This document shows positions 3,577-62,240 of a stretch of 64,000 nucleotides of DNA, piece after piece; positions within the stretch are counted from its first letter, which is position 1, and every line of letters begins with the position of its first letter. The translations under genes were made by a program, and so were the position numbers. Origin of the DNA: an uncultured Prevotella sp. (lineage in GTDB: Bacteria > Bacteroidota > Bacteroidia > Bacteroidales > Bacteroidaceae). The stretch lies in assembly GCA_944320355.1 (NCBI GenBank), contig CALUHC010000022.1:62001-126000 (forward strand), in the 5' to 3' direction. The notes beneath the pieces are model-generated. The model saw only the letters and a program-made list of their open reading frames with translations, searched no databases and was not told the DNA's origin.

Positions 3577-3680
3577 AAAGGCTGTTGTGCCGTTTTCCAA
3601 AACGTGCCGTTTCAGGCGATGAAACGGGTCGTTTCGCAATGCAAAACGTGCCGTTTCGCAACGCGAAACGGCACGTTTTG
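3577..3680. repeat. 22-bp phased palindrome array 1
   Basis: Four 13-bp cores start at 3600, 3622, 3644 and 3666, exactly 22 bp apart, with centres TGC, GGT, TGC and GCA inside AAACG-NNN-CGTTT. A degenerate unit precedes them. The last two cores pair as a 17-bp perfect hairpin with loop AAC (3643-3659 with 3663-3679). The array lies 3' of the DUF5686 gene. Confidence 0.85.
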
Positions 3681-3709
3681 TAAAACTATGTCGCGGAGAC
3701 TGCTTACCG

Positions 3710-6247
3710 TCAGAATGTCATGCGGAACATGAAGCGCACTCCGTGCTTGTGTGCGGTGGGCAGGTTGAGGTAGTTGAACCTGTGCACATACTCCACATGG
3801 AGTATCTTGAAGATGTTGTGTATGCCGAACGACATCTCCACGTATGGTTTCTTGGGGTCCATGACATAGCAGCCCTCGGGGAACTCCATGAGCAGGGGGT
3901 CGCCGGCGTTCTGCGCCAGATAGGGGTTGTTCTTGCTCGAAAGGTCGCCCCAGAGGCATTTCACGGCTATGTATTCGCGCCACTTCAGCTTCTTTATGAG
4001 CGGTATGCGGTTGAACAGCTTGCCGTTGAGGTCCCACGATATGTCGGCGCTGACAAAGCGGTCGTTGAGGAACTCCATGTTGTTCACGAGCTGGAATGTC
4101 TGGTCCTGGATGATGTATGAAAGGTTTGTGGCGGGCATGCAGAGCAGCGGGAACGGCACCTTGTTCCACTGTACGCCGCCGCGCACATAGCAGTCCACCT
4201 TTCCCCAGCTGTTGAGCCAGAAGCGCTTGTAGATGCTGGCCTCGGAGTAGTTGTAGTTGTAGTCGCCCCCCAGCACGTCTTTCAGGCCTACCGTGTGGCT
4301 GATGGTGAACACCGGCGCGTCGAGGTTTATCTTCAGCCGGCGTTGCTTCGTGTTGATGTATGTCTCGCCGGGGGCGAAGCGCAGCTCGGCGCGCACTTCG
4401 GTTGTGCGGAACTTCACGCCGTCGGTTGCTGACAGCGGGCGGAAGTACAGGTAGCCGCAGGCCTCGTTCTCCTCGGCCTTCACGGCGACGGTGGTCTTGA
4501 AGCCCCAGTCCTCCTCGCGCTCGAAGGTCAGTTCCTGCCTGTTGTAGAACATCATCTTGTCCACCTTCGTCCATTTCAGGGCTGTGAACACGTTGTCCTT
4601 GTCGGTGTGCATGAACTTGTCGGAAGGCGAGCAAACGTCGTAGGTGGACGAGAACGTGAGCGTGCGCTTTGGGAACTCGCGCGGCAGGTATTCCTTCTTG
4701 TTGAACGAGTATGTCACTTCGCCCTTGTAGTAGTTCTTGTGGCTGTCCCACCCGCGGGCGTAGTAGCCGCTGAGGAAGAGCTGCGGGTGCAGCTTCGCGG
4801 TGGTCTGCGCGCTTACGCGGGTGCGCACTCCGTCGATGAAGTTGCTCGATATCATCGTGTTTATCGGGCCTATGTCCACCTTGCTCGGGTCGCCGGTTTC
4901 CACAAAGTTCTCCACGAGGGCCTTTGCGAAGAAGATGATATACTTGAATCCTTTTATCTGCTCAAGGTTGTGCACGAAGGCATCCATCTTGCCCTCGCTC
5001 TGTGTGAGGTGCACCTGCCTGTACTTGTTCCAGAAATCATCGTCGCGCATCATCGCGTCGGCTTCCCTCACTTCGCGGGCCTTGCCCTTGAAGAGCTGCT
5101 TTGGCAGCTCGTCGAAGGCATAGTCGCTCAGCCGCGTGGTGCGTATGACCACGGCCTTGGCTATGAAATTGGTCACCTTCATCTCGGCCACCATGTCGTC
5201 TTGCGTGAGCACCCAAGTGCCGTCGGCCAGCTTTGTAAACTGCTGCAGCACGCGCAGGTTCTCGACGAAGTTGACGTCGCTGCGCTTGGGGATGGTGAGC
5301 TCGCAGCGTTTCACCTGGTATGACGAGTCGGCCATGATGTATATGTCGCCGCGGAAGCCGAAGTCCTGCTGGTTGTTGGGCAGGAAGTGCAGGTGGAAGC
5401 ACTTGTCGCGGTCCACGTAGACGGTGTCCTCGATGTAGAAACGGTAGAAGGCGATGGCGTCCTTTCCTATCGGCGAGGTGAACGGATACTGCAGCAGGCG
5501 CACCTGGTCGTCGTAGATGTTGACGTCGGTGAACACGTCCTTTAGGGCCACGGTGAGTATGTTGCCCGTCTGGAACAGGTCGTTCACGCCGCTGGAGTTC
5601 TGCCCCTTGATGATGTCTTTTTCGTTGTGGGGGTCCTTGCGGTATATTTTCTGCGTCACGGTCTCGTCGACCGAGAGCGGCAGTATGAGCTTTCCGTTGT
5701 ACTGGCACTTCTCCACCTGGTCCTTGAGCCACGGCATCTTCTTGAACCTTGGCGTCTCCAGCTTCTCGGGTGTGATGTCGTTGATGGCCAGTGTTATCTT
5801 CTGGTACTTGTTGTATTGGTAATAGTCGCGGTTCTTCAGGTCGGTGAGCTTCTTTGCGGCGATGACTTTCTTCATCAGTTCCACCGCCGGGTTGTTCTTG
5901 CGGCTGTACTTGCCGCGCTTGGACCTCACCGTCACTTCCTTCAGCGAGCGCGTGTCTGGTTTCAGCCTTATGTCGAGCCTTGACTTTGTTTTAGGCCCTA
6001 TGGTGACGGTCTGCGGCAGGTAGCCGACAGAGCTGAACGTGAGCTGCCAGCCGTTGTGGCGCTCTATGGTGTAATGGCCGCTGAGATTCGAGGCCACGGC
6101 GACGTTATGGCTGCGGTAGATCACGCTGGCATACGGTATGCTGTCGCCGGTGGCATCATCAATGATATAGCCGGAGATCTGCGCTTTAAGCGGCAGTGCC
6201 ACAAATAAAAGCAGCAACAGGAAGTATGTTATTCTGTTTATTCTCAC
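3710..6247 (-). CDS. DUF5686 / carboxypeptidase-regulatory-like outer-membrane protein (paralogue 1)
   Basis: About 845 aa. A signal peptide (MRINRITYFLLLLLF... ending LKAQ) leads into a carboxypeptidase-regulatory-like beta-sandwich (ISGYIIDDATGDSIPYASV, residues about 24-105) and then the DUF5686 region (VTVRSKRGKYSRKNNPAVEL onward). The C-terminal half alternates aromatic and polar residues and ends GVRFMFRMTF, a beta-barrel-like aromatic terminus, so outer-membrane location is likely. Function is unknown. No ATG fits: GTG at 6247 gives the best signal peptide and TTG at 6262 is an alternative. It follows the inositol-phosphate synthase gene by about 200 nt. It is a clear paralogue of the protein at 19825-22224, sharing RKNNPAVELMKKVIAAKK and FGFRGDIYI. 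Confidence 0.85.
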   Translation of the reverse strand: MRINRITYFLLLLLFVALPLKAQISGYIIDDATGDSIPYASVIYRSHNVAVASNLSGHYTIERHNGWQLTFSSVGYLPQTVTIGPKTKSRLDIRLKPDTRSLKEVTVRSKRGKYSRKNNPAVELMKKVIAAKKLTDLKNRDYYQYNKYQKITLAINDITPEKLETPRFKKMPWLKDQVEKCQYNGKLILPLSVDETVTQKIYRKDPHNEKDIIKGQNSSGVNDLFQTGNILTVALKDVFTDVNIYDDQVRLLQYPFTSPIGKDAIAFYRFYIEDTVYVDRDKCFHLHFLPNNQQDFGFRGDIYIMADSSYQVKRCELTIPKRSDVNFVENLRVLQQFTKLADGTWVLTQDDMVAEMKVTNFIAKAVVIRTTRLSDYAFDELPKQLFKGKAREVREADAMMRDDDFWNKYRQVHLTQSEGKMDAFVHNLEQIKGFKYIIFFAKALVENFVETGDPSKVDIGPINTMISSNFIDGVRTRVSAQTTAKLHPQLFLSGYYARGWDSHKNYYKGEVTYSFNKKEYLPREFPKRTLTFSSTYDVCSPSDKFMHTDKDNVFTALKWTKVDKMMFYNRQELTFEREEDWGFKTTVAVKAEENEACGYLYFRPLSATDGVKFRTTEVRAELRFAPGETYINTKQRRLKINLDAPVFTISHTVGLKDVLGGDYNYNYSEASIYKRFWLNSWGKVDCYVRGGVQWNKVPFPLLCMPATNLSYIIQDQTFQLVNNMEFLNDRFVSADISWDLNGKLFNRIPLIKKLKWREYIAVKCLWGDLSSKNNPYLAQNAGDPLLMEFPEGCYVMDPKKPYVEMSFGIHNIFKILHVEYVHRFNYLNLPTAHKHGVRFMFRMTF

Positions 6248-6410
6248 AATCTTTAAGCTCAAATGGCGGCAAAAACAAGATTAGGCGACGAGAACGGAAG
6301 CCATGCTTGCGCCAGCCTTGTGGGCCGTGGTGTGCGTTGCGGCCTGTGTGCTGATGCAATATGCACTTAGCGGCGGCTGTGCGCAATGCGTGGCTTCCCT
6401 CTCCAAGCAT

Positions 6411-6445
6411 AAAAGATTCCGTGGCGGAGCTGCCGTCACGGAATC
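6411..6445 (-). terminator. intrinsic terminator after inositol-phosphate synthase
   Basis: On the minus strand GATTCCGTG and CACGGAATC form a 9-bp stem with additional inner pairing, followed by TTTT. It begins 8 nt after the stop of the upstream gene, so DUF5686 transcription would need read-through or its own promoter (a near-consensus TAATCTTG occurs before it). Confidence 0.65.
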
Positions 6446-6452
6446 GGCACAA

Positions 6453-7760
6453 TCAGTCAATCTCTTCGTCGGCTTCGTATCCGCCCATCTCGCGGATGGC
6501 GTTCTTCAGCATCGTGTACTGCTGGTAGAGGTTGTTCACAGCCTCCTCTCCCTTGGTGTAGTCGTGCATGGGGCTCTTCAGGAAGAAGCTGAGGAAACGC
6601 TGTATGCCGTAGCGTCCGGCGCGCGCGGCGAGGTCGCTGAGCAGCGTGAGGTCGAGCAGCAGCGGGGCGGCGAGTATGGAGTCGCGGCAGAGGAAGTTTA
6701 TCTTGATCTGCATCGGGTAGCCCATCCAGCCGAATATGTCGATGTTGTCCCAACCCTCCTTGTTGTCGTTGCGCGGCGGGTAGTAGTTGATGCGCACCTT
6801 GTGGTAGTAGTCCGTGTAGAGGTCGGGCTGCACCTCGGGCTTCAGTATGGTCTCAAGCGTGGAGAGCTTGCTCACCTCCTTGGTGTGGAAGTTGGCCGGC
6901 TCGTCGAGCACGAGGCCGTCGCGGTTGCCCAGGATGTTTGTCGAGAACCATCCGCTCAGGCCCAGGCAGCGCGTGCCGATGATGGGGGCGAATCCGCTCT
7001 TGACGAGAGTCTGGCCGGTCTTGAAGTCCTTGCCGGCTATGGGCATACGGGTCTTCTCGGCCAGTTCCCACATGGCGGGTATGTCTACGGTCGTGTTTGG
7101 TGCGCCCATGATGAACGGGGCGCCTTCGGTGAGGGCTGCGTAGGCGTAGCACATCGACGGAGCCACGTGCTCGCGGTCGTCGTCTTTCATTGCCTGCTCG
7201 AGCGCGGCCAGCGTTCCGTGAACCTTCTCGTCTACCGGAACGTATATCTCTGTGGATGCGGCCCAGATGACAACAACACGCGCGCAGCCGTTCTTCTGCT
7301 TGAAGTCGCGTATGTCCTGGCGTATGGCCTCTGCCATCTCCCAGCGCGTCTTGCAGTCCTTGACGTTGTCGCCGTCGAGGCGCTTCGCGTAGTTCTTGTC
7401 GAAAGCGGCTTTCATCGGCACAATCTTCTCAAGCTCATCCCTGACTGGGTCAATGTCCTTCTCCTTCAGGACCTCGGCGTACATGGCTGCCTGATAGGCG
7501 TTCTGGGGGTAGACATCCCATGTGCCGAAGACAATGTCGTCGAGCTTTGCCAATGGAACTATGTCGCCGTAATGCAGGTATTGCTTGTCTGCGCCGCGTC
7601 CGACACGTATCTTGTCATATTGTGTCATAGAGCCAATGGGCTTGGCCAATCCGCGGCGCGCCATGAACACGCCTGTCATGAACGTCGTGGCAACGGCACC
7701 GTTGCCAACGATCATAATACCCAACTTGCCGTCAGCCGGCTTTACATCAGTTTGTTTCAT
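6453..7760 (-). CDS. ino1: inositol-3-phosphate (myo-inositol-1-phosphate) synthase
   Basis: A 435-aa NAD-dependent isomerase/cyclase that converts glucose 6-phosphate to myo-inositol phosphate. The Rossmann nucleotide motif is GNGAVATT (residues 19-26). Further family segments include VVIWAASTE, the substrate loop KDFKTGQTLVKS, and DNIDIFGWMGYPMQIKINFL in the C-terminal half. Length fits the bacterial/archaeal-like branch. In Bacteroides an equivalent gene opens the inositol-lipid cluster (BT_1522-BT_1526, recalled, not checked). Here its neighbours are an ATP-grasp protein and a HAD protein upstream, and DUF5686 downstream. The substrate glucose 6-phosphate links it to pgi in this window. 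Confidence 0.93.
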   Translation of the reverse strand: MKQTDVKPADGKLGIMIVGNGAVATTFMTGVFMARRGLAKPIGSMTQYDKIRVGRGADKQYLHYGDIVPLAKLDDIVFGTWDVYPQNAYQAAMYAEVLKEKDIDPVRDELEKIVPMKAAFDKNYAKRLDGDNVKDCKTRWEMAEAIRQDIRDFKQKNGCARVVVIWAASTEIYVPVDEKVHGTLAALEQAMKDDDREHVAPSMCYAYAALTEGAPFIMGAPNTTVDIPAMWELAEKTRMPIAGKDFKTGQTLVKSGFAPIIGTRCLGLSGWFSTNILGNRDGLVLDEPANFHTKEVSKLSTLETILKPEVQPDLYTDYYHKVRINYYPPRNDNKEGWDNIDIFGWMGYPMQIKINFLCRDSILAAPLLLDLTLLSDLAARAGRYGIQRFLSFFLKSPMHDYTKGEEAVNNLYQQYTMLKNAIREMGGYEADEEID

Positions 7761-7842
7761 TGCAATGAATATTAAATGTAGATGTTATTTTTTTGTTTGT
7801 GAACACATCGTTTGTATGTATGGCGTGCGTTTTGCCATACGG
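7761..7842. promoter_or_regulatory. HAD-inositol synthase spacer with small hairpin
   Basis: The 82-nt gap contains GTATGGC and GCCATAC arms about 10 nt apart (about 7815-7842). There is no T-tract and no clear -7 box, so the two genes may be co-transcribed. Confidence 0.3.
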
Positions 7843-8550
7843 CTACAGCAATTCGTCGAGGCTGCCAATCACCGCGTCGGCCGCCGAGGTGTCTGCCGGG
7901 TCGGTTCCCGTCCAGCTCTCGCCGCGCATCCACACCGTGCGGCATCCGGCCAGCCGTGCCGGCACAATGTCCTTGTCGTAGCTGTCTCCCACCACGGCCA
8001 CGCGCCCGGCTTCCATGCCGAGAGCCTCCACCCCGAGGGTGAAAATGCGCGGGTCGGGCTTGCGGACGCCCACCACAGCCGATTCCACGATGCTGTCGAA
8101 GATGCCTTCGAGGCCGAACTCAGCGAGCACCGTGGCTATGTTGCCGTAGAAATTGCTCACCAGTGCCAACGGCCTCTCTGCCTTGATTGCGTCGAGCACC
8201 CTGCGGCTGCGCGCCGTCTCGGCCCGCACGGCGGCATATAGGTCGGCGAGCACAGCGTCGTGCCACAGTGCGGGGGCGAATCCCTCGTTGTGTGCGGCTA
8301 TATATTCCATTTCTATGCGTAGCTTAGCTGAGAGCGTCTGCCGGAACGTATAGTCCGGCTGTATGATGGGGTTGCGCCCCAGTTCGCGCTCTGCGTGCAC
8401 GTATGCTTCACGGAACAGCGGCTCGCCCACCGGCACCCGTTGCCGCTCATAGGCGTGCCAGATGACGCGCCCCCAATGGTGCCCGCCCGTGTCGAGCGTG
8501 CCTCCGTAGTCGAATATGCAGCCGTCGGTCTGCTCCAATATTTCTGTCAT
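7843..8550 (-). CDS. HAD-superfamily protein with a DYGGTLD nucleophile motif
   Basis: A 235-aa HAD protein. Motif I is FDYGGTLD (Asp14), motif II VSNFYGN, the lysine motif VGVRKPDPRIF, and motif IV VVGDSYDKDI. The second aspartate of the usual DxD, the general acid/base of HAD phosphatases, is glycine (Gly16). Either this branch uses another acid or it is not a standard phosphatase. I recall related Bacteroidetes proteins with the same DYGG, so it is probably a family trait. The ATG overlaps the stop of the ATP-grasp gene by 4 nt, which rejects a longer frame starting at 8670. Position before the inositol synthase suggests action on inositol phosphates or lipids (inference). Confidence 0.85.
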   Translation of the reverse strand: MTEILEQTDGCIFDYGGTLDTGGHHWGRVIWHAYERQRVPVGEPLFREAYVHAERELGRNPIIQPDYTFRQTLSAKLRIEMEYIAAHNEGFAPALWHDAVLADLYAAVRAETARSRRVLDAIKAERPLALVSNFYGNIATVLAEFGLEGIFDSIVESAVVGVRKPDPRIFTLGVEALGMEAGRVAVVGDSYDKDIVPARLAGCRTVWMRGESWTGTDPADTSAADAVIGSLDELL

Positions 8551-9371: not shown

Positions 9372-9399
9372 TTGTCCGGATTAGTTATATTCCGGGCGA

Positions 9400-9407
9400 C
9401 AAAGTTA
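9400..9407 (-). promoter_or_regulatory. -7 promoter box of the ATP-grasp operon
   Basis: TAACTTTG on the minus strand is a full match to TAnnTTTG, placing the start site near 9393 and giving a leader of about 20 nt. Confidence 0.6.
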
Positions 9408-9599
9408 GATAAAATATGTCTTATATCAGAAAACTTTGCGGCCATTTTAATTTTTCTTAGCAATATATTTCAGTAAAGTGTTCTAAACTTCTTGAAATAT
9501 GCTCTTTATGCCGTATATCTGCATTATATGCCGTCTGACGCCGGCAAATACTCAAGTATGAATGTCCGCAAGTTGCCAAACGTGTTTGAAAGAGTTTCA

Positions 9600-9735
9600 C
9601 TTGTCCCATCCTTTTCCAAAGGAGGGGCGGGGGTGGCTTGTCAAAATAGGTTTATACATAATACGTTTCATCATAGATTATGGCATTATTCTACAAACCA
9701 CCCATGCCCCTCCTTTGGAAAAGGAGGGGACAATG
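9600..9735. repeat. long inverted repeat (CCTTTTCC.AAAGGAGGGG family)
   Basis: Arms at about 9600-9641 and 9693-9735 are near-perfect reverse complements, sharing CCTCCTTTGGAAAAGG-type sequence plus GGGTGG / CCACCC. They surround an AT-rich 51-nt interior. It could form a large hairpin and is not associated with a gene. Confidence 0.7.
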
Positions 9736-9840
9736 CGTTTCTATTTGGCAATATGCGGACATTCATTTACTCAAGAAGTCAGGCCTTCACCATGCAAGAA
9801 CGTCCTTAACTGTTTCTGCGTCCGCATTCGTAGTTGGGAG

Positions 9841-9859
9841 TGACCTATTTGGGTTAAGG
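9841..9859. repeat. solo end of element B
   Basis: TGACCTATTTGGGTTAAGG equals the right terminal repeat and flank of the 192-bp element B, but no partner end lies nearby. It is likely a remnant or recombination product. Confidence 0.5.
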
Positions 9860-9981
9860 TACGTCCTTGTGTGGAATGAAGCCTTTTGCATACTGGCCAA
9901 TATCACATCACAAGGCCTTATTTTACGGTTATGTTTTCTTGCAGAGGTAAAAAATCCATGCGGAAATAGTGTGACAGCCAT

Positions 9982-10068: not shown

Positions 10069-10160
10069 CCTTAATTTTAACATTTAAGAAAATGCTGAAA
10101 TAGGAAACGAAAAGCTTCGTGGAATAGATTGTCTTGACAAAAACGGCTCTCTTTTTTGTG

Positions 10161-10483
10161 ATATATGCCGTTTTGAAATCCGAAACGGCATGTATTGCGT
10201 CGCGAAACAGGCCATATCGCAGGGTAAAATGGCACATACGGCAGGCCGTTTTTGGCCAAAATGCGTCGTTTCGGGTAGCTTTTCGCCGGATATTGGGGCG
10301 CTCTTTGTTGCGCAGTGTGCTCAAACCTTCTGCTAATCGTGTGGTTTACAGCAGCTTGCGATTGCACATCCATTTTCGCGTTATTTGCAGCCGTGGCAGT
10401 CTTTTCGTTTGGAAATGCGATTTCTGGGAGCCTTTTTCTTGCGGCGATTAACATAATTAACAATCATTGACGCGCGGCTGGCT
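10161..10483. repeat. composite repeat, copy 1 (palindrome array 2 plus tail)
   Basis: Palindromic 13-bp cores at 10161, 10183, 10205 and 10227 keep the 22-bp step, though the halves are degenerate (TGTAT, CATAT and CATAC replace CGTTT). They are followed by GGCAGGCCGTTTTTGG, a conserved block at 10349-10393 (GCTTGCGATTGCAC, TTTTCGCGTTATTTGC) and an AT-rich block at 10448-10483 containing ATTAACA and TTGAC. The same order recurs at 61922-62240. Confidence 0.75.
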
Positions 10484-17612: not shown

Positions 17613-17695
17613 AAACGGCCCGTTTCGGCCTCTGAAACGACCCGTTTCACCATGCGATTCGTGCCGTTTTGCAATGCAAAACGGCACGAATCGCA
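17613..17695. repeat. 22-bp phased palindrome array 3
   Basis: Cores start at 17613, 17635, 17657 and 17679 (centres GCC, ACC, TGC, GCA). The last two form a perfect 20-bp stem with loop AAT (17653-17672 with 17676-17695), in which ATTCG and CGAAT replace the usual halves in a compensatory way. It lies between convergent genes. Confidence 0.85.
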
Positions 17696-17818
17696 ATGGC
17701 GTGTGTGCGCCATTGTTTTCCGGTGGGTTTCCGTTATCCTTTTCGGGCGGTTGCAGGCATGGCGTGTCGCCGTTGCCACTGTCGTAGTGTTCCTGCGGCC
17801 TGCGTGGGCAGCAGGCGT

Positions 17819-24135: not shown

Positions 24136-24214
24136 AAACGTGCCGTTTTGCCTTGCGAAACGTGCCGTTTCACCGTCCAAAACGTGCCGTTTTGCCTTGC
24201 GAAACTTGCCGTTT
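24136..24214. repeat. 22-bp phased palindrome array 4
   Basis: Cores at 24136, 24158, 24180 and 24202. The first three are identical (AAACGTGCCGTTT) and the fourth differs by one base, so here the array is a head-to-tail direct repeat. Linkers are TGCCTTGCG, CACCGTCCA and TGCCTTGCG. It sits between divergent genes. Confidence 0.85.
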
Positions 24215-24293
24215 CGCACAGCCGTTTGGCAGGCTTTGTTTTTTGGCAGGCCTTTGCCCGGCACGCCAGCTTCATTATAATAAAAGTAAAAAA

Positions 24294-24350: not shown

Positions 24351-26111
24351 ATGACTATGAACGTTTTAGAACTGAGCGAACAGGAACTTGGCAGACGCCA
24401 GAGCCTGCAGGAGCTGCGCGAGATGGGCATCGACCCCTATCCCGCAGCCGAATATCCCACCAACGCTTTCTCCACCGACATCAAGGAAAACTTCCGCGAC
24501 GAGGACGAGCCGAGGCAGGTGTGCATCGCCGGGAGGATGATGAGCCGCCGCGTGATGGGCAAGGCCAGCTTTGCCGAGCTGCAGGACTCGAAGGGAAGGA
24601 TACAGGTTTACATCACCCGCGACGACATCTGTCCGGGCGAAGACAAGGACTTATATAATAAGGTGTTCAAGCGTTTGCTCGACATCGGCGACTTCATCGG
24701 CGTGCGCGGATTCGTGTTCCGCACGCAGACGGGCGAGATTTCGGTGCACGCCAAGGAGCTGACGCTGCTGTCGAAGAGCCTCAAGCCGCTGCCCATAGTG
24801 AAGTACAAGGACGGCGTGGCCTACGACAAGTTTGACGACCCCGAGCTGCGCTACCGCCAGAGGTACGTGGACCTGGTGGTCAACGACGGAGTGAAGGACA
24901 CATTCCTGAAGCGCGCCAAGGTGATAAGCACCATACGCCGCGTGCTCGACGGGGCCGGATACACCGAGGTGGAGACGCCAACGCTGCAGAACATACCGGG
25001 CGGTGCGAGCGCAAGGCCGTTCATAACGCACTTCAACGCGCTCGACACCGATATGTATATGCGCATAGCCACCGAGCTGTATCTGAAGAGACTGATAGTC
25101 GGCGGATTTGAGGGCGTGTATGAGATAGGCAAGAACTTCCGCAACGAGGGCATGGACCGCAACCACAATCCGGAGTTCACCTGCATGGAACTCTACGTGC
25201 AGTACAAGGACTACAACTGGATGATGTCGTTCACCGAGAAGCTGCTCGAAGAGGTGTGCGTGGCCGTGAACGGCAGCACGGAGCGCGAGATAGACGGCAA
25301 CATCGTCAGCTTCAAGGCTCCCTACCGCCGCCTGCCCATACTCGACGCCATAAAGGAGAAGACGGGCTACGACCTCACGGGCATGGACGAGGCACAGATA
25401 CGCGAGGTGTGCGGCAAACTCGGCATGGAGATTGACGACACAATGGGCAAGGGCAAGCTCATAGACGAGATATTCGGCGAGTTCTGCGAGGGCACGTTCA
25501 TACAGCCAACGTTCATCACAGACTATCCCGTGGAGATGTCTCCGCTCACCAAGATGCACCGCTCAAAGCCTGGATTGACCGAGCGCTTCGAGCTGATGGT
25601 CAACGGCAAGGAGCTGGCCAACGCCTACTCCGAGCTGAACGACCCCATAGACCAGGAGCAACGCTTCATAGACCAGATGCGGCTGGCCGACAAGGGTGAC
25701 GACGAGGCCATGGTGATAGACCACGACTTCCTGCGCGCCCTGCAGTACGGCATGCCGCCCACGAGCGGCATCGGCATCGGCATAGACCGCCTGGTGATGC
25801 TCATGACGGGCAAGACGTTCATACAGGAGGTGCTCTTCTTCCCGCAGATGCGCCCAGAGCACAAGGCTCCGCGCAGCTCGGCCGCAGAGTGGGCAGCCGT
25901 GGGCGTGCCGGAGGAGTGGGTGCCGGTGCTCAACAAGTGCGGCTACTACCTCGTGCAAGACATCAAGGACGTGAACCCGCAGAAGCTGCAACAGGATGTC
26001 TGCGGCGTCAACAAGAAGTACAAGCTGGGCTACGACAACCCCAAGGTAGAGACGTTTGCAGCCTGGATAGAGGCCGCGGCCGGACAGGCGGAAGGAGAGA
26101 AGCAAGACTGA
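24351..26111 (+). CDS. lysS: lysyl-tRNA synthetase, class II
   Basis: 586 aa. An OB-fold anticodon domain (residues about 58-170, [21 protein letters not shown]) precedes the class II core. Motif 2 is [19 protein letters not shown] and motif 3 [13 protein letters not shown], with EVETPTLQ before motif 1 residues. It charges tRNA-Lys. About 80 residues at the C-terminus (after the catalytic core, from RPEHKAP) extend beyond the E. coli enzyme and are typical of Bacteroidetes. ATG at 24351 or two codons later. Hairpin terminator follows. Confidence 0.97.
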
Positions 26112-28660: not shown

Positions 28661-29386
28661 ATGTACGAGAAAGAAATAAATGAATACAAGCAGAAGTACG
28701 GCTTTGGGGAGTTCTGCCCCAAAGCCGTACTTTTCGATATGGACGGCGTTCTCTACGACTCCATGCCCAACCACGCGCAGAGCTGGCACCGGTCGATGGC
28801 GAGCTTCGGCATTAGGATGTCGGAAGCAGAGGCTTACAAGTACGAGGGTATGCGCGGGGTGGAGACGATAAAGATTGTGGCCCGTGAGCAGTGGCACCGC
28901 GAGATAAGCGACGAGGAGTCGCAGCGGATGTACGACGAGAAGTCGCGCCTGTTCGCCCTGTGCCCCCAGGCCAAGGTTATGGAGGGCGTGCAGGACTTGC
29001 AGCGCAAGATAAAGGCTGCGGGGATGAAGATTGTTGTCGTTACGGGCAGCGGCCAGCACTCGCTGCTCCAGAAGCTGGTGGAGGACTTCCGCGGCCTCGT
29101 AAGCCCCGACCTCATAGTGTCGAGCTTTGACGTTAGCCGCGGCAAACCCAACCCCGAGCCTTATCTCAAGGGGCTGGCCAAGGCGGGAGTGGAGCCGTGG
29201 CAGGCCGTTGTGGTGGAGAACGCGCCGCTCGGTGTGCGCGCCGCCGTGGCCGCAAGGATATTCACCGTGGCCGTGAACACCGGCCCGCTGCCATCCGAAA
29301 TGCTCTCTGCCGAGGGGGCGAGCTTGGTGTTCGGCCGCATGACCGACCTGCGCGACAGCTGGGAAGGCATAGCTGTCGCGCGTTAG
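28661..29386 (+). CDS. HAD-family hydrolase (beta-phosphoglucomutase-like)
   Basis: 241 aa. Motif I is LFDMDGVLYDSM (Asp26, Asp28), motif II VVTGSGQ, the lysine motif SRGKPNPEPYLKG and motif IV VVVENAPLGVRAA. The DxD pair and cap domain fit phosphoglucomutase or sugar-phosphatase types. ATG at 28661 is preferred to GTG at 28658. Location 19 nt after pgi suggests a sugar-phosphate substrate. A perfect 16-bp inverted repeat lies within codons 12-24, so expression may be attenuated inside the gene. Confidence 0.9.
   Translation: MYEKEINEYKQKYGFGEFCPKAVLFDMDGVLYDSMPNHAQSWHRSMASFGIRMSEAEAYKYEGMRGVETIKIVAREQWHREISDEESQRMYDEKSRLFALCPQAKVMEGVQDLQRKIKAAGMKIVVVTGSGQHSLLQKLVEDFRGLVSPDLIVSSFDVSRGKPNPEPYLKGLAKAGVEPWQAVVVENAPLGVRAAVAARIFTVAVNTGPLPSEMLSAEGASLVFGRMTDLRDSWEGIAVAR
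28694..28732 (+). promoter_or_regulatory. intragenic 16-bp perfect hairpin with T-tract
   Basis: AAGTACGGCTTTGGGG (28694-28709) and its exact complement (28717-28732) flank a 7-nt loop and end in TTTT. It starts 33 nt into the HAD coding region and 53 nt after the pgi stop, so it could terminate or attenuate read-through from pgi. Confidence 0.6.
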
Positions 29387-31408: not shown

Positions 31409-31509
31409 AAATGGCCCGTTTCGGCTTGCAAAACGGCCCGTTTTAGGGCGCGAAACGGGTCGTTTCATCGTGCGAAACGGCACGTTTTAAAATACGAAAC
31501 GTTTGCGGC
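31409..31509. repeat. 22-bp phased palindrome array 5
   Basis: Five units start at 31409, 31431, 31453, 31475 and 31497, each exactly 22 bp apart. Centres are GCC, GCC, GGT and GCA. The fifth is AAACGTTTGCGG, which lacks the 3-nt centre and resembles a LacI operator. It lies between divergent GH105 and barrel genes. Confidence 0.85.
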
Positions 31510-37471: not shown

Positions 37472-37580
37472 AGGGCTGCCGTTTCGTCGTGCAATATGTG
37501 CCGTTTCGTGACGCGAAACGGCACGTTTCATCATGCAAAACGGGTCGTTTCGCACTGCGAAACGACCCGTTTTGCAACCC
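37472..37580. repeat. 22-bp phased palindrome array 6
   Basis: Cores at 37472 (degenerate), 37494, 37516, 37538 and 37560. The last two form a perfect 17-bp stem with loop ACT (AAAACGGGTCGTTTCGC and its complement). It lies between convergent aroB and menE; the rest of the 245-bp gap holds nothing else. Confidence 0.85.
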
Positions 37581-44748: not shown

Positions 44749-44940
44749 CTAAAATATTCAGGTGGTTGCAAGAGTTTCCTGGTTTTTAATCGTATATGGT
44801 TAGGATAAGGCTAATGAATTTCCGCAAACAGCCCAGACGCTCTGTGCCTGCCAACAGACACGCGTCGCCATTAACATTTTTATGTTAAAGACGGCGACAA
44901 GAGCAGTGTTGGCCAAACGCCTGATATCCAATGGGTTGCA

Positions 44941-45041
44941 AAACGGGGCGTTCTGCCTTGCGAAATGTGCCGTTTTGCAGGCCAAAACAAGCCATATTGC
45001 AGCGCGAAACAGGTCGTTTCAGAATGTGAAACGGCACATAC
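44941..45041. repeat. 22-bp phased palindrome array 7
   Basis: Five cores at 44941, 44963, 44985, 45007 and 45029. Several halves are degenerate (CATAT, CATAC). It lies 3' of the LacI gene. The rest of 44749-45541 holds element B copy 3 and no recognised gene. Confidence 0.8.
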
Positions 45042-45116
45042 GGAAAACCAAGGCTGCATAGATTGTTTTTTAGTTGCGTATTTGCAAGTACGGGCAGATT
45101 GCGGATATCCATTTAA

Positions 45117-50585: not shown

Positions 50586-50664
50586 AGACAGGCTGTTTCG
50601 CTCTCCGAAACGCCACATACTGCAACCCGAAACGGGTCGTTTTGCGTTCCAAAACGGCCTGTCT
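50586..50664. repeat. 22-bp phased palindrome array 8
   Basis: Cores at 50586, 50608, 50630 and 50652, of which only the third is the full AAACG-GGT-CGTTT. It lies between divergent nusB and rplY. Downstream to 51000 there are scattered AAACGG words and a CCTCGCGC/GCGCGAGG hairpin (50904-50933) but no gene. Confidence 0.75.
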
Positions 50665-51019
50665 TGCGTTTCAACCGTGTCTAAATCGCTGTGCATATTG
50701 CCGTTTTCTGTGTTTAAACGGTTGTGTTTCAGGGTGTTGTGTCAGTATGCCCGTTTTGGTCGTATTTGCGGCCTGATGGCGGTTTCGCCGCAAAAACGGG
50801 CAAAATGAGCGGCTTTTTCATCGTGTGGGAGGTTGCCTTGTGAAACATATTTTCGTGTTTGTTGTGTTTCTGTAACCCTTGCTGCGCTCGCTTCCGGTAG
50901 CAGCCTCGCGCTGCCGTGGACTGTGGCGCGAGGTGGCACTTGTCTGTCGCCGGAGGTCAAAGAAGGGCACGGCGTGTGTTATTTTGCGTGAAATCCTTGC
51001 TCGTTTGGATAAAAAAACG

Positions 51020-54019: not shown

Positions 54020-54020
54020 C

Positions 54021-55563: not shown

Positions 55564-55625
55564 AGAGTGAGCGGGAGATAATGCGCTTAATGCACACATA
55601 GACAAAAGGATAAGTAAACAGACAG

Positions 55626-56129
55626 ATGACAAATACAGACAACAGAAAGGATGAGGGGCTGCACGCCCTCGGCTCGAATACGAGATATTCCATGGACTAC
55701 GCGCCCGAGGTGCTGGAGACTTTCGCCAACAAGCACCCGGAGAACGACTACTGGGTGCAGTTCAACTGTCCCGAGTTCACGTCGCTCTGCCCCATCACCG
55801 GGCAGCCCGACTTCGCCGAGATACGCATAATGTACATTCCCGGCGAGCGTATGGTGGAGAGCAAGAGCCTGAAGCTCTATCTCTTCAGTTTCCGCAATCA
55901 TGGCGATTTCCATGAGGACTGCGTGAACATAATAATGAAAGACCTCGTGAGGTTGATGCAGCCCAAGTATATAGAGGTGACCGGACTGTTCACCCCACGC
56001 GGCGGAATAAGCATACATCCCTACGCCAACTACGGCCGGCCGGGCACAAAATACGAGCAGATGGCCGCGCGAAGGCTGGAGGCGTATGCCGGGAGCGGCG
56101 GCCTAGTCCAATCCAATCTGCCGAGATGA
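55626..56129 (+). CDS. queF: NADPH-dependent 7-cyano-7-deazaguanine reductase
   Basis: 167 aa. It reduces preQ0 to preQ1. The catalytic Cys55 and Asp62 are in [12 protein letters not shown], the NADPH motif is ESKSLKLY (78-85), and FHED (95-98) carries the substrate glutamate. Unimodular QueF of normal length. Co-transcribed with the transporter, 62 nt apart. No queC, queD or queE in the window, so the cell may depend on imported preQ0 or on genes elsewhere. Confidence 0.95.
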
Positions 56130-56175
56130 ACGAATAGAGCAGCCTTGCCTGCCACATTATAAATATATACGGGAA

Positions 56176-58521: not shown

Positions 58522-58612
58522 GCCGCTGTCATCACTTTGCGTTTATAGAAACGATTTATCCGTTCGGCAAAAAATAAACGCCTACCGATATGTTTATTCC
58601 GATAATATTCCT

Positions 58613-58620
58613 TACCTTTG
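58613..58620 (+). promoter_or_regulatory. -7 promoter box of the carboxyltransferase gene
   Basis: TACCTTTG, about 130 nt before the ATG at 58753. Confidence 0.55.
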
Positions 58621-58752
58621 CGTTGGGATAGTCCGCACAATGGCTGTCGGCGCATAGTGTGTGCCGCAGGCTCCGGTGGCGGGCTCGCGTTAACTATTAA
58701 TTAATGTATGACTGAAGTGGGCGCGGCCCACAGACAAAAAATTAGAGACGTT

Positions 58753-60528
58753 ATGAAGAAAAGAATCCAGTTCAGTCTCGTTTACCGGGACATGTGGCAG
58801 TCTTCAGGTAAGTTCCAGCCACTCAAGGACCAGTTGGAGCGCATCGCTCCGGTCATAATCGACATGGGGTGCTTTGCCCGTGTGGAGACCAACGGTGGCG
58901 CCTTCGAGCAGGTGAACCTGCTGGCGGGCGAGAACCCAAACGCTGCCGTGAGGGCGTTCTGCAAGCCATTCAACGAGGTTGGCATAAAGACCCACATGCT
59001 CGACCGCGGACTCAACGCTCTGCGAATGTATCCCGTGCCCGACGATGTGCGCCGCCTGATGTACCGCGTGAAGCACGCTCAGGGTGTTGACATACCGCGA
59101 ATATTCTGCGGCCTGAACGATGTGCGCAACATAATACCCAGCATCAAGTGGGCCAAGGAGGCCGGCATGACTCCGCAAGGCACGCTCTGCATCACCACGT
59201 CACCTATACATACCGTAGAATATTACAGCGACATAGCCGACCAGCTCATAGCCGCCGGGGCCGAGGAGATATGCCTCAAGGACATGGCCGGCATAGGCCA
59301 ACCTGCCATGCTCGGCGCGCTGACCAAGGCTATAAAGACGAAGCACCCCGACATCATCATACAATACCACGGCCACTCGGGCCCCGGCCTCTCCATGGCT
59401 TCCATCCTTGAGGTGTGCAACAACGGTGCCGACATCATTGACACGGCCATAGAGCCGCTCAGCTGGGGCAAGGTCCATCCGGATGTCATCTCGGTCCAGA
59501 GCATGCTGAAGAACGAGGGCTTCGATGTTCCGGAGATAAACATGAACGCTTATATGCAGGCCCGGTCGCTCACGCAGGAGTTCATAGACGACTGGCTGGG
59601 CTATTTCATCAACCCTGCCAACAAGCACACGTCGTCGCTGCTGCTCGGTTGCGGGTTGCCGGGCGGAATGATGGGCTCCATGATGGCCGACATGGGCGGC
59701 ATACGCAACGTCATCAACGGCATACGCCGGGGCAAGGGCGAGAGCGAGCTGAGCATGGACGATATGCTGGTGAAGCTTTTCGACGAGGTGGCATACGTGT
59801 GGCCGCGCGTCGGCTATCCGCCATTGGTGACGCCGTTCTCGCAGTATGTCAAGAACATCGCCCTTATGAACCTGCTCACGCTGACGCAGGGCAAGGGGCG
59901 TTTCGTGATGATGGACGACTCGATGTGGGGCATGATACTGGGCAAGAGCGGCAAGGTGCCGGGAACGATAGCACCCGAGCTGGTGGCTCTGGCCGAGAAG
60001 CAGGGGCGCAAGTTCACCGACGACGACCCGCACACGCTGCTGCCCGACGCTCTCGACGGATTCCGCGAGGAGATGCAGAAGAACGGCTGGGAGGCCGGGC
60101 AGGACGACGAAGAGCTGTTCGAGCTGGCCATGCACCCCGAGCAGTACCGCAACTACAAGAGCGGGCAGGCCAAGAAAAACTTCCTGGCCGACCTGCAGAA
60201 GGCCAAGGACGCGCGCCTCGGCTCGCAGCTGACCCCCGAGCAACTGTCTGCGCTCAAGCACGCCAAGGCCGATGCCATAGTGGCTCCGCTGGGCGGGCAC
60301 CTGTACTACGAGTTTGGCGGCGCGAGCGAGTGCGCACCCTGTCTTGAGCCGTTCATAGGCCAGCGCTACAAGGAGGGCGACACCTTCTGCTACATACAGG
60401 CCAAGTGGGGCGAGATTGTTCCTGTGCCGTCCGACCTCGGCGGCAAGCTCGTTGAGGTCGTTGCGCGACAGGGAGCAAGTGTTCGCCGCGGCGACATACT
60501 CGGCTGGATAGAGCGAGAGGGCAACTAA
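58753..60528 (+). CDS. oxaloacetate decarboxylase alpha / pyruvate carboxylase subunit B-like protein
   Basis: 591 aa. The HMGL-type carboxyltransferase barrel begins FSLVYRDMWQSSGKF, with RVETNGGAFEQV, the carbamate-lysine region EICLKDMAGIG and metal histidines in YHGHSGPG. A PYC_OADA-like helical part follows. The C-terminal lipoyl/biotinyl-like fold (about 515-591, VAPLGGHLYYEF, then GDTFCYIQAKWGE) lacks the AMKM biotin motif; the lysine sits in QAKW. It may work unbiotinylated or use a separate carrier. No decarboxylase beta/gamma subunit adjoins. ATG at 58753 preferred over 58708. Confidence 0.85.
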   Translation: MKKRIQFSLVYRDMWQSSGKFQPLKDQLERIAPVIIDMGCFARVETNGGAFEQVNLLAGENPNAAVRAFCKPFNEVGIKTHMLDRGLNALRMYPVPDDVRRLMYRVKHAQGVDIPRIFCGLNDVRNIIPSIKWAKEAGMTPQGTLCITTSPIHTVEYYSDIADQLIAAGAEEICLKDMAGIGQPAMLGALTKAIKTKHPDIIIQYHGHSGPGLSMASILEVCNNGADIIDTAIEPLSWGKVHPDVISVQSMLKNEGFDVPEINMNAYMQARSLTQEFIDDWLGYFINPANKHTSSLLLGCGLPGGMMGSMMADMGGIRNVINGIRRGKGESELSMDDMLVKLFDEVAYVWPRVGYPPLVTPFSQYVKNIALMNLLTLTQGKGRFVMMDDSMWGMILGKSGKVPGTIAPELVALAEKQGRKFTDDDPHTLLPDALDGFREEMQKNGWEAGQDDEELFELAMHPEQYRNYKSGQAKKNFLADLQKAKDARLGSQLTPEQLSALKHAKADAIVAPLGGHLYYEFGGASECAPCLEPFIGQRYKEGDTFCYIQAKWGEIVPVPSDLGGKLVEVVARQGASVRRGDILGWIEREGN

Positions 60529-60529
60529 T

Positions 60530-60722
60530 TGATAATTGAGAATTGGGAATTGAGAATTATGATTACCTTTTTCCGGATGGAGGCTGTACCTGTTTCCATA
60601 CTGCAAATGCACCGAAAGCGTGACGCATCAAGGTAATCATAATTCTCAATTCTCCCTTCTTAATTCTCAATTTGCGCAAGCATAGGTTCTCAATTCCCAA
60701 TTTTCAATTCTCAATTTCCCCG
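60530..60722. repeat. AATTGAGAATT inverted repeat cluster
   Basis: 23-bp perfect arms at 60547-60569 and 60630-60652 (GAATTGAGAATTATGATTAC plus 3) with a 60-nt interior, flanked by further CAATTCTCAATT units up to 60717. It starts at the carboxyltransferase stop and reaches the HD gene start, so a 17-codon N-terminal extension of the HD frame is repeat-derived. Confidence 0.8.
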
Positions 60723-61256
60723 ATGTATCAGTCAATAATAGACAAGTATTACCCCGAAGACAACGCCTTGAAGCGGCTGTTGCTGCGCCACAGCCGCGAC
60801 GTGGCCGACCGTGCCATGGCCATAGCCGTGCGCCATCCCGAGCTGAAGCTCGACACGGCGTTCCTTGAAGAAGGAGCCATGCTACACGACATAGGCATAT
60901 TTATGACCGACGCGCCCGGCATACACTGCCACGGCACCGACCCGTACATACGCCACGGCATAGACGGTGCGGAGCTGATGCGCCGCGATGGGTTGCCCCG
61001 CCACGCCCGCGTGTGCGAGCGGCACACCGGCGCGGGCATAACGCTCGCGCAGATAGAGGCGCAGCGGCTGCCGTTGCCGCTGCAAGACTTCCTGCCCGAG
61101 ACCATGGAGGAGAAGGTGATATGCTATGCAGACAAGTTCTTCTCCAAGTCACATCCCGAGCGCGTTCGCACGGTGGAGCAGGCCGCCAAGAGCCTTGCCA
61201 AGTTTGGGCCGGACGGCGTTGACCGCTTCATGGCCTGGGCAGCCTTGTTCGAGTAG
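60723..61256 (+). CDS. HD-domain phosphohydrolase
   Basis: 177 aa. The HD motif residues are in LLLRHSRDVADRAMAIA (first His), AMLHDIGIFMTDA (His-Asp) and VCERHTGAGI (His). Later EKVICYADKFFSKS supplies the last Asp. Such proteins cleave phosphate esters, often nucleotides or 2',3'-cyclic phosphate. ATG at 60723 (MYQSIIDKYYPED) is taken because the upstream part is repeat sequence. Confidence 0.87.
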   Translation: MYQSIIDKYYPEDNALKRLLLRHSRDVADRAMAIAVRHPELKLDTAFLEEGAMLHDIGIFMTDAPGIHCHGTDPYIRHGIDGAELMRRDGLPRHARVCERHTGAGITLAQIEAQRLPLPLQDFLPETMEEKVICYADKFFSKSHPERVRTVEQAAKSLAKFGPDGVDRFMAWAALFE

Positions 61257-61352
61257 GGCGGGGCGTGGGCCTGACAGGACCACCTCCAGCCTTTCCCAAA
61301 AGCGTTCCTCCCTCCAAGTGGGTGTGCCGAAATGCACATCTTGTGGCTATAA

Positions 61353-61610
61353 CCCTCTCCCCAGCCCTCTCCCAAAGGGTGAGGGAGCAGTTAGCACGAT
61401 GCCCTTTGGCTTTCGCAGCCTTTGTTTTACCTTTTTACCCTTTTACTTTTTTACTTTTATGGGCGGCGAGGAAGTAGTTTGCCTGTGGGGCGAGCTTAAG
61501 AATGAATAGCCATAACGACTTGAATGACAATAAAATAAGATGTCTCAGAATGACTTCGGGGGCAAGCGGTAACTGCTCCCTCGCCCTTTGGGAGAGGGTC
61601 GGGGAGAGGG
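61353..61610. repeat. 41-bp inverted repeat (CCCTCTCCC..AAAGGG type)
   Basis: Arms 61353-61393 and 61570-61610 are reverse complements with about three mismatches (GGGAGCAGTTA / TAACTGCTCCC, CCCTCTCCC / GGGAGAGGG). The interior carries a TTTTTACC simple repeat and no gene. It is part of the 1.1-kb gene-free interval 61257-62404. Confidence 0.75.
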
Positions 61611-61657
61611 CTTGCTGAGAGGGACGAGCATTTTGATGTGTTCTCAGTGGAGGGCTT

Positions 61658-61832
61658 AGAAGCTGTTTTGATTTTATCATATATGCCTTTTACCCCTGCC
61701 GTCTTGAGTGCATTTTGGGTCATATTCGCCCGTTTGCTTCGTCACATAGCCCGCTATGCTTCCCAGCAAACGGACAAAAATGCCTCAAAAATCCAACACA
61801 ATCCGGCAGTTGATAAAATCAAAACAGCTTCT
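61658..61832. mobile_element. element C copy 2 (175-bp MITE-like)
   Basis: The ends AGAAGCTGTTTTGATTTTAT(CA) at 61658-61679 and its exact complement at 61811-61832 form a perfect 22-bp terminal inverted repeat. The interior contains CGTCACATAGCCCGCTATGC, opposite in orientation to copy 1. No coding capacity. Confidence 0.85.
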
Positions 61833-61912
61833 TAAAATTAACACTTCATTTTCCGACGAAATAGAAAACAAAAAGCGTGGTTTTGCGAAATATCCGCTCA
61901 AAAAAGCCGCCG

Positions 61913-62240
61913 CGCAATGCAATATGTGCCGTTTCGGTGTGCGAAACGGCACATATTGCATTGCGAAAAGGCCTGTTTCGCAAGCCGAAACGGCAGGTTT
62001 GGCAGGCCGTTTTTGGTCAAAAAACACTGTTTCTTGCCGATTTTTGGCAAATATCATGGCATCCGTTGTTGCACACTTATGCCATTTTCTCCATAACATC
62101 CCTGATGCTCAGCCGCTTGCGATTGCACGCCCGTTTTCGCGTTATTTGCCGCCGAGGTGCGGTCCGTCAGCGAGAACCGATTCTCCGAGAGCTTTTTCCC
62201 GTGACAATTAATATTATTAACACTTGTTGACACGCGGCGG
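61913..62240. repeat. composite repeat, copy 2 (palindrome array 9 plus tail)
   Basis: Cores at 61922, 61944, 61966 and 61988 (22-bp step). The first two form a 24-bp perfect stem (61913-61936 with 61942-61965, loop GTGTG). GGCAGGCCGTTTTTGG, GCTTGCGATTGCAC with TTTTCGCGTTATTTGC, and the AT-rich ATTAACA/TTGAC block follow in the same order as at 10161-10483. Confidence 0.8.

What the first reader, a model, noticed from the sequence alone, without database searches (positions are those of the whole stretch)
3577..62013. Nine intergenic arrays of a 13-bp dyad at an exact 22-bp step
Seen directly: cores of the form AAACG-NNN-CGTTT start at 3600/3622/3644/3666, 10161/83/205/27, 17613/35/57/79, 24136/58/80/202, 31409/31/53/75/97, 37472/494/516/538/560, 44941/63/85/45007/29, 50586/608/30/52 and 61922/44/66/88. 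The step is 22 bp with no exception, while linkers (consensus about YGCNNNGCR) vary. Centres are nearly always TGC, GCA, GGT, ACC, GCC or GGC. The linker is also near-palindromic, so dyad axes alternate about every 11 bp, one helical turn. They occur after genes, between convergent genes and between divergent genes, so they are not simply terminators or promoters. Candidates: a REP/BIME-like element moved by a RAYT transposase, a multi-site protein scaffold on one DNA face, or structured RNA. I know of no named element with this design.
Basis: seen in the sequence. Interest (0 to 1): 0.9.

Follow-up and report, generated by a model that had tools for sequence, protein, structure and literature searches.

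The report
Evenly spaced 22-bp DNA dyad arrays
Prevotella chromosomes carry short clusters of palindromes, always 22 letters apart and spaced several thousand letters from each other, whose spelling differs from species to species, which suggests docking stations for an unknown DNA-binding protein that organises the chromosome.

Summary
In detail: nine intergenic arrays of 4-5 AAACG-NNN-CGTTT dyads at an exact 22-bp step. They are genome-wide: 61 arrays in 456 kb of this Prevotella-like genome. They keep apart: 2 of 56 gaps are under 4 kb, against 22.9-24.2 expected for random intergenic placement (minimum 14 in 2,000 simulations per null). Relatives G112, G004 and, weakly, G101 agree; G016 and G218 do not show it significantly. 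The 22-bp step recurs in the genus while the core changes: AAAGG..CCTTT, ATTAC..GTAAT, AATATG..CATATT, TACGTC..GACGTA. Arrays with different cores sit at some of the same gene edges, for example upstream of lysS. Flanks are shared between arrays here, but not in G004 or G101, so the array, not a mobile element, looks like the conserved part. REP/RAYT, BrickBuilt/MITE, iteron-Rep_3, Rfam-RNA and general-hairpin explanations failed tests; one G016 transposase gene flanked by arrays is a counter-example. Best reading: docking arrays for an unidentified cooperative DNA-binding protein of fast-changing specificity, forming chromosome nodes every 6-10 kb. The protein was not found; the function is inferred.

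The parts
3578..3678 (.). Array 1: five 22-bp units (the unit at 3578 is degenerate); lies between two minus-strand genes (1847-3316 RmuC family; 3710-6262 DUF5686)
10139..10239 (+). Array 2: units at 10139/10161/10183/10205/10227, degenerate cores, class C flanks
17613..17713 (-). Array 3: units at 17613/35/57/79 (+17701 degenerate), class C, between convergent genes
24136..24236 (+). Array 4: four TGC-centred units plus one degenerate, class A, between divergent genes, immediately upstream of lysS (24351-26111). Arrays lie upstream of lysS in several relatives with different cores
31409..31509 (.). Array 5: units at 31409/31/53/75/97, between divergent genes
37472..37572 (-). Array 6: units at 37472/94/516/38/60, class A (leader TGACAATCAGTGGGGTTGCA on the minus strand)
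44941..45041 (+). Array 7: five units, class B
44871..44888 (+). Class B companion palindrome TTAACATTTTTATGTTAA, 70 bp before array 7; in the sampled G000 sequence the motif occurs only beside arrays (11 of 11)
45067..45090 (+). Class B companion tail TTTTTAGTTGCGTATTTGCAAGTA, 25 bp after array 7; motif near arrays 11 of 11 in sampled G000
50586..50686 (-). Array 8: weakest array in the window (PWM 49), class C, between divergent genes
61900..62000 (+). Array 9: units at 61900 (degenerate)/61922/44/66/88, class C

Best explanation
Each array is a docking platform of about four to five dyad sites for one sequence-specific, dimeric, cooperatively binding DNA protein, encoded elsewhere. SHOWN: fixed 22-bp step (about two helical turns, so sites lie on one face), 4-5 units, strong conservation of the core and little of the linker, intergenic location irrespective of gene orientation, and a minimum spacing between arrays in G000, G112 and G004. 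SHOWN: in related species the same geometry, and partly the same positions, carry a different core. INFERRED: a single protein occupies all arrays of a genome, and when its specificity drifts, all sites drift with it. INFERRED, less certain: the filled platforms act as regularly spaced chromosome nodes (loop anchors, tethers or compaction points) about every 6-10 kb rather than as promoters or terminators.
For: 61 arrays in 456 kb of G000, 2 of 56 gaps under 4 kb; random intergenic placement gives 22.9-24.2 (minimum 14 in 2,000 simulations for each of three nulls); CV 0.42 against 0.83-0.88. At a threshold where reversed sequence gives 0 arrays: 57 arrays, 2 of 52 gaps under 4 kb, CV 0.44, 0 of 2,000 simulations as low. 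G112: 35 arrays, 0 of 28 gaps under 4 kb, null 9.0, minimum 2, CV 0.39 against 0.94; at the strict threshold 30 arrays, 0 of 23 (null 6.8, minimum 1), CV 0.59, 9 of 2,000 as low. G004: 20 arrays, CV 0.33 against 0.87, 0 of 2,000; G101: 10 arrays, p 0.0185. In 80 named loci (1.20 Mb) lag-22 seeds number 48 against 0-7 at ten other lags that are not multiples of 3 (lag 16: 22). Different cores. Positional orthology with different cores: 6 of 8 array edges against 4 of 30 control edges, p 0.0017; within 750 bp upstream of lysS 11 of 75 loci against 2.3 expected. G112 against G000: both 5, G112 only 5, G000 only 14, neither 94, p 0.0097. At the five shared edges the array stays while linkers and flanks differ. 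Contexts tandem 35, divergent 13, convergent 11; 1 of 61 overlaps a called gene.
Against: No binding protein was identified. There are no expression, ChIP or contact-map data. Spacing is not significantly even in G016 or G218. In G069 no array was detected in the sampled 200 kb, although 5 exact pairs exist genome-wide with core ACGTC..GACGT, so density varies strongly. In G000, 37 of 61 arrays share flank sequence with another array, so many spread inside longer repeats. In G016 a Y1 transposase gene lies between two arrays. A weak excess of complementarity between adjacent units (u1-u2 z 3.5, u2-u3 z 3.7, non-adjacent between -1.7 and 1.2) is not predicted by simple protein binding. The lag-22 seeds of the 80 named loci are only modestly more dyadic than those at other lags (9 of 48 against 1 of 16 with 9 or more of 10 pairs), so some may not belong. 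Evenness in bp cannot be told from evenness in transcription units (CV 0.42 and 0.40).
Confidence: 0.5

Rival explanations
1. Non-autonomous mobile or dispersed repeat (MITE- or REP-like) whose insertion is subject to target immunity: new copies cannot land within about 4 kb of an old one, which gives the spacing, and the array is the transposase-binding part.
For: In G000 arrays sit in dispersed repeat classes A, B, C with sharp edges; 37 of 61 share flanks; two class C copies are 86% identical over 548 bp. G016 has 9 of 15 and G088 5 of 11 with shared flanks. One of two G016 Y1 loci examined has an array on each side, 0.17 and 0.38 kb away, the other one array at 0.36 kb.
Against: No terminal inverted repeats in the class consensus. 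Arrays in G004 (0 of 20), G101 (0 of 10) and G112 (4 of 35) lack shared flanks, yet these three show even spacing. Cores are uniform within a genome while linkers differ; copies of one element should resemble each other throughout. Y1 genes are missing from G000, G101, G107 and G156. A TIR-bearing 209-bp MITE exists in the same genome and looks quite different.
Confidence: 0.2
2. Structured RNA or bidirectional terminator/attenuator: adjacent units pair into hairpins in the transcript.
For: Adjacent units are more complementary than swapped ones. Some arrays contain perfect 18-bp arms with a 3-nt loop (G004 and G101 axes of 18/18).
Against: Only 21 of 366 axes in G000 and 6 of 120 in G004 reach 16 of 18. 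Linker halves do not co-vary at most positions. Arrays also lie between divergent genes. No Rfam match in the window. RNA pairing does not explain one uniform core per genome.
Confidence: 0.08
3. Self-marks read by a defence, repair or DNA-uptake system, so that any few-kb piece of own DNA carries a mark; fast core change reflects an arms race or speciation.
For: Even spacing and species-specific cores. Two pattern scans of the viral collection gave 1 stretch each; the first is a single terminator-like hairpin, not an array.
Against: The second viral-collection match is a real four-unit AAAGG-type array in a 4.2-kb contig, either host DNA or a virus that carries one. No cognate system identified. 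Rarity in the viral collection is weak evidence, because only two cores were scanned and viruses of these species are probably poorly sampled.
Confidence: 0.1
4. Sites for a conserved enzyme or nucleoid factor such as gyrase, used as supercoil sinks, as reported for BIME in enterobacteria (recalled).
For: Intergenic, context-independent, evenly spaced.
Against: A conserved enzyme would not need a different core in each species within one genus.
Confidence: 0.08

Closest known systems
REP/BIME elements with RAYT (Y1) transposases
   Same: Many intergenic palindromic units per genome, in clusters, with species-specific sequence (REP features recalled); one G016 Y1 gene lies between two arrays
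   Different: Exact 22-bp step and 4-5 units, even spacing, Y1 absent from G000, G101, G107 and G156, most Y1 loci read without a nearby array
BrickBuilt of Porphyromonas gingivalis (PMC4596501; part 1 of 9 of the text and passages seen)
   Same: Bacteroidales, intergenic, short tandem units inside a larger repeat with leader and tail
   Different: 23-nt unit AGAYCATARTATCCTCTCRTRTG, 1 to 22.8 copies, 19 loci, terminal inverted repeats; here 22 nt, dyadic, 4-5 copies, 61 loci in 18% of the genome, no TIR
Iteron arrays of plasmid origins bound by Rep_3 initiators (recalled)
   Same: About five binding units at 22-bp phase on one DNA face
   Different: Many chromosomal loci; Rep_3 found in 4 of 13 genomes searched
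SegB sites in Sulfolobales (PMC12284271; abstract and section list seen)
   Same: Scattered sites of one DNA-binding protein that compacts and loops the chromosome; a model for how it may work
   Different: Archaeal; the abstract describes sites predominantly in intragenic regions and mainly close to segAB; no even spacing is mentioned there
ParB-parS
   Same: G000 half-site CGTTTYGC resembles the parS half-site GTTTCAC (recalled)
   Different: One ParB in 10 of 11 genomes (four ParB_N matches in G218); canonical parS is present separately in 6 of 6 near-complete genomes

Membership tests
REP/BIME (RAYT-associated) | A cognate Y1 transposase gene in the genome | tested here: not met
   0 in G000 (80% complete, so not decisive alone); 0 in G101, G107, G156; present in the other 12 of 15 genomes searched
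REP/BIME (RAYT-associated) | Y1 gene flanked directly by its own repeats of this kind | tested here: not met
   12 Y1 loci read of 18 matches listed: 22-bp arrays somewhere in the 5-kb stretch in 5 of 12. Exception: one G016 Y1 gene has arrays at 0.17 and 0.38 kb on its two sides, its paralogue one at 0.36 kb. Where palindromes abut the genes (for example G004) they are of other kinds
REP/BIME (RAYT-associated) | GTAG-type tetranucleotide 5' of the hairpin (recalled) | tested here: not met
   The unit and class consensus of G000 contain none beside the units
MITE / BrickBuilt | Terminal inverted repeats | tested here: not met
   None in the consensus of classes A, B, C of G000, whereas an unrelated 209-bp repeat in the genome has them
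MITE / BrickBuilt | Target-site duplication at the element ends | not tested
   Ends are not sharp enough in single copies; no empty sites were compared
MITE / BrickBuilt | BrickBuilt 23-nt unit and variable copy number | tested here: not met
   Different unit; 4-5 units in 49 of 58 arrays at the first threshold, 2-3 in 9
Iteron origin | Rep_3 initiator in the genome | tested here: not met
   4 of 13 genomes (G069, G084, G107, G218); none in G000, G004, G016, G082, G088, G099, G101, G112, G156
ParB-parS | ParB as the binder of these sites | tested here: inconclusive
   Canonical parS exists separately in 6 of 6 near-complete genomes; binding itself not testable here. G000 and G112 (80% and 77% complete) showed no parS
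Rfam structured RNA | Match to a curated family | tested here: not met
   0 matches at gathering score in the 64-kb window
Cooperative multi-site protein array | Sites in constant helical phase, linker free to vary | tested here: met
   22-bp step in G000 and relatives, core information high and linker low
Cooperative multi-site protein array | A protein that binds the arrays | not testable with these tools
   Needs pull-down or ChIP

The most novel reading that the evidence does not exclude
A genus-wide chromosome-organising system in Prevotella: one fast-evolving DNA-binding protein per species reads a private palindrome code, installed as 4-5-unit, 22-bp-phased platforms every 6-10 kb around the chromosome. 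The geometry and many positions persist while the code is rewritten at hundreds of loci between close species, a bacterial analogue of rapidly changing centromere-protein systems.
Probability: 0.3. Interest if true: 0.95.

Novelty: categorically new. Interest (0 to 1): 0.85.

Why it matters
In ten open-access full-text searches I found no described element with this combination: exact 22-bp phase, near-fixed unit number, minimum spacing of several kb and a core sequence rewritten between close species. If the arrays are protein platforms, Prevotella, a common gut genus, has an undescribed genome-wide nucleoprotein architecture, and the concerted change of hundreds of sites gives a natural experiment on how a DNA-binding specificity and all its targets can change together.

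Tried and rejected
RAYT/REP: rejected as the general explanation, with the G016 exception. BrickBuilt: rejected by unit sequence and structure. Known RNA: no Rfam hit in the window. Iteron initiators: rejected. ParB as binder: disfavoured. General hairpin model: weakened. G069 as an array-free control: I used it so at first, because 200 kb of it showed none; one search showed a dyad array elsewhere in it and five exact pairs with core ACGTC..GACGT, so that argument is withdrawn. Large array-free gaps as mobile islands: the two largest gaps, both in C10, were inspected by ORF lists only; one holds a 3,886-aa gene and a degenerate array, the other a run that looks by eye like a SusC/D-type operon. 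Class as a function of gene context: no clear link except a lean of class B to one orientation (7 of 11). Unit orientation: adjacent units are not opposite more than chance (66 against 65.1). Leader TGATAATCAGTGNGTTGC as an invariant companion: 2 of 200 genomes, so not general. Blastn synteny: too few hits, replaced by protein orthologs. Order-level families: no lag-22 excess in 272 kb, but several contigs were tiny or masked.
Full report
OBSERVATION. The nine arrays are present at the stated coordinates at a strict 22-bp step. AAACGNNNCGTTT with up to one mismatch occurs 28 times in the window against 1.9 expected, and 0 of 100 shuffles reach that. The window is G000:C22:62001-126000 of a 2.48-Mb, 80%-complete genome. 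The best named lysS matches, at 90-94% identity, include uncultured Prevotella MAGs and Xylanibacter caecicola. The whole genome has 287 perfect adjacent pairs and none in the backwards-pattern control.

ANATOMY. I fetched 392 kb more of this genome, 456 kb with the window, 18% of it. A PWM scan (symmetrised by me, so its symmetry is partly imposed) found 61 arrays at threshold 18; shuffled contigs score at most about -52. Reversed sequence, which keeps the periodicity, gives 20 at that threshold; at 50.5 it gives 0 against 57 real. At the first, cruder threshold 49 of 58 arrays had 4-5 units; by flank register a fifth, degenerate unit is usual. The ten outer core positions carry 1.15-1.90 bits, the three centre positions 0.42-0.62, linker positions 0.16-1.01. 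There are two dyad axes 11 bp apart, at core and linker centres, in G000 and in four relatives. The core centre is directional (GSN or NSC). A 19-bp dyad centred on the linker, CGTTTYGC-NNN-GCRAAACG, repeated every 22 bp, is the simplest protein site (inference).

SPACING. Of 56 gaps 2 are under 4 kb, most lie between 5.4 and 8.7 kb, and a cluster sits at 10.3-12.2 kb. Placing the same numbers at random in intergenic spaces gives 22.9-24.2 gaps under 4 kb (minimum 14 of 2,000 for each of three nulls) and CV 0.83-0.88 against the observed 0.42. With the strict threshold: 57 arrays, 2 of 52, CV 0.44, 0 of 2,000 as low. A 2-kb hole in the fetched C22 could hide an array. Replicates: G112, 35 arrays in 409 kb at a lax threshold (13 in reversed sequence), 0 of 28 gaps under 4 kb (null 9.0, minimum 2), CV 0.39 against 0.94; strict, 30 arrays (0 reversed), 0 of 23 (null 6.8, minimum 1), CV 0.59, 9 of 2,000 as low. 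G004, 20 arrays in 140 kb, CV 0.33 against 0.87, 0 of 2,000; G101, 10 arrays, CV 0.46, p 0.0185. Against: G016 (15 arrays in 200 kb, empty stretches of 27 and 43 kb) and G218 (10 in 100 kb) are not significantly even. G088 and G099 were not tested. Whether the ruler is base pairs or transcription units cannot be told.

LOCATION. 1 of 61 arrays overlaps a called gene, by 22 bp. Of 59 with two neighbours 35 are tandem, 13 divergent, 11 convergent. Genes come from a simple caller of my own. Of ten window genes beside arrays scanned with Pfam, nine had hits, all ordinary (RmuC, a helicase, two LacI regulators, GH88, ribosomal L25 and others); lysS was named from its translation.

RELATIVES. The exact AAACG pair is in 15 of 398 genus genomes, own included, and in none of 59 others in an earlier set. 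A core-free test shows the architecture elsewhere. In 80 named lysS loci (1.20 Mb) stretches self-similar at lag 22 number 48, against 0-7 at ten other lags (multiples of 3 left out because of coding periodicity); lag 16 gives 22, unexplained. 31 of 80 loci have at least one. They are only modestly more dyadic than other-lag stretches (9 of 48 against 1 of 16), so some may not belong. Learned cores: G101 AAAAGG-CNG-CCTTTT, G004 AAAGGCGGCCTTT, G016 ATTAC-NNN-GTAAT, G088 AAAGGTGGCCTTT. Read by eye: G006 AAAAGCTATGCTTTT, G082 TTGGCAGCGGCCGCTGCCAA, G084 with CAAATT half-sites, Hoylesella AAAAGCATTGCTTTT, L036 AATATGNCCCATATT. G069 showed none in 200 kb, but has 5 exact pairs genome-wide with core ACGTCNNGACGT, one of them about 1 kb upstream of lysS. 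Order-level families show no excess in 272 kb.

SAME PLACE, OTHER CODE. Gene edges with an array in G004, G101, G088 or G016 also have one in G000 in 6 of 8 cases, against 4 of 30 edges without (p 0.0017). G112 against G000: both 5, G112 only 5, G000 only 14, neither 94 (p 0.0097). Upstream of lysS 11 of 75 loci have a lag-22 stretch within 750 bp against 2.3 expected (13 against 2.9 at a looser threshold; at least three of those 13 look like noise), with unrelated cores. At the five shared G112-G000 edges linkers and flanks differ; four keep core identity 0.69-0.74 against linker 0.44-0.53, the fifth (0.52 against 0.60) does not.

MOBILE ELEMENT? In G000 many arrays sit in dispersed repeats: class A about 185 bp, B about 265 bp, C over 370 bp; 37 of 61 share flanks with another array, and two class C copies are 86% identical over 548 bp. 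There are no terminal inverted repeats. In G004 0 of 20, G101 0 of 10 and G112 4 of 35 share flanks; in G016 9 of 15 and G088 5 of 11 do. The array, not the flank, is common to all six. Y1 transposases are missing from G000, G101, G107 and G156 and present in 12 of 15 relatives searched. Of 12 Y1 loci read, 5 have an array in the 5-kb stretch. The closest are in G016: one Y1 gene has arrays 0.17 and 0.38 kb away on its two sides, and its near-identical paralogue one at 0.36 kb. That is the best evidence for the mobile rival; it did not change my odds, because it is one genome and a duplicated segment.

RNA? Adjacent units are more complementary than swapped ones (u1-u2 z 3.5, u2-u3 z 3.7, u3-u4 1.8, u4-u5 0.5, others -1.7 to 1.2), and a few arrays hold perfect hairpins, but 345 of 366 axes do not reach 16 of 18, and linker halves pair no better than chance at most positions. 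Shared ancestry of class C copies and quasi-palindrome repair (recalled) could explain the excess. No Rfam match in the window.

OTHER BINDERS AND VIRUSES. One ParB in 10 of 11 genomes (G218 has four ParB_N matches); canonical parS found separately in 6 of 6 near-complete genomes. Rep_3 in 4 of 13. Of the two viral-collection matches one is a single hairpin, the other a four-unit AAAGG-type array in a 4.2-kb contig of unknown nature. The binder remains unknown.

VERDICT. The geometry points to a phased multi-site protein platform; the uniform core per genome, changing between species at partly conserved positions, points to one fast-evolving binder; the even spacing points to a whole-chromosome role. 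The last two steps are inference. Novelty rests on ten full-text searches of an open-access library, so a subscription-only description cannot be excluded.

Noticed in passing
window 9558-9766: A copy of a separate 209-bp repeat with clear terminal inverted repeats (ATGAATGTCCGCA...TGCGGACATTCAT), a MITE by structure; other full or partial copies in C22, C4, C6, C9 and C10 of the same genome, none in the fetched parts of 8 relatives.
   Followed up: partly
window 44871-44888 and class B elements elsewhere in G000: The palindrome TTAACATNNTTATGTTAA beside class B arrays contains TTATGTTAA, which resembles the XerD half of a dif site (recalled). It occurs only beside arrays in the sampled sequence (11 of 11).
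   Followed up: no
L036-L115: Lag 16 also shows an excess of short self-similar stretches (22 seeds against 7 at lags 17 and 19) in the named loci.
   Followed up: no
L231 1582-2839 (G016:C1): A Y1 transposase gene lies between two 22-bp arrays, 0.38 and 0.17 kb away; its near-identical paralogue in L230 has one array 0.36 kb away.
   Followed up: partly
L227 1152-1240: A contig of the viral collection (4.2 kb) carries a four-unit AAAGG-type 22-bp array.
   Followed up: partly
L233 near 6443 (G069:C1 about 3309443) and L288: G069, which showed no array in 200 kb, has dyad arrays with core TACGTCNNGACGTA elsewhere (5 exact pairs), like the Segatella copri locus L076; one lies about 1 kb upstream of lysS.
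   Followed up: partly
L157 and L159 (G069:C1): Near-perfect, apparently non-dyadic tandem 22-mers at 28686 and 60226 of the joined stretch.
   Followed up: no
L025 2929-14589 (minus strand): A 3,886-residue open reading frame fills much of one of the largest array-poor gaps of contig C10.
   Followed up: no
L238 (G112:C6:1-5000) near 1684: Tandem repeats built on CTCCCACGCTTTCTCCCGCGTTCA beside a Y1 transposase gene.
   Followed up: no
L228 (G004:C6:148500-153500): A Y1 gene flanked by its own palindrome GGCCTCGAAGAGGTCGAA, a likely genuine RAYT-REP pair in a genome that also has 22-bp arrays.
   Followed up: partly
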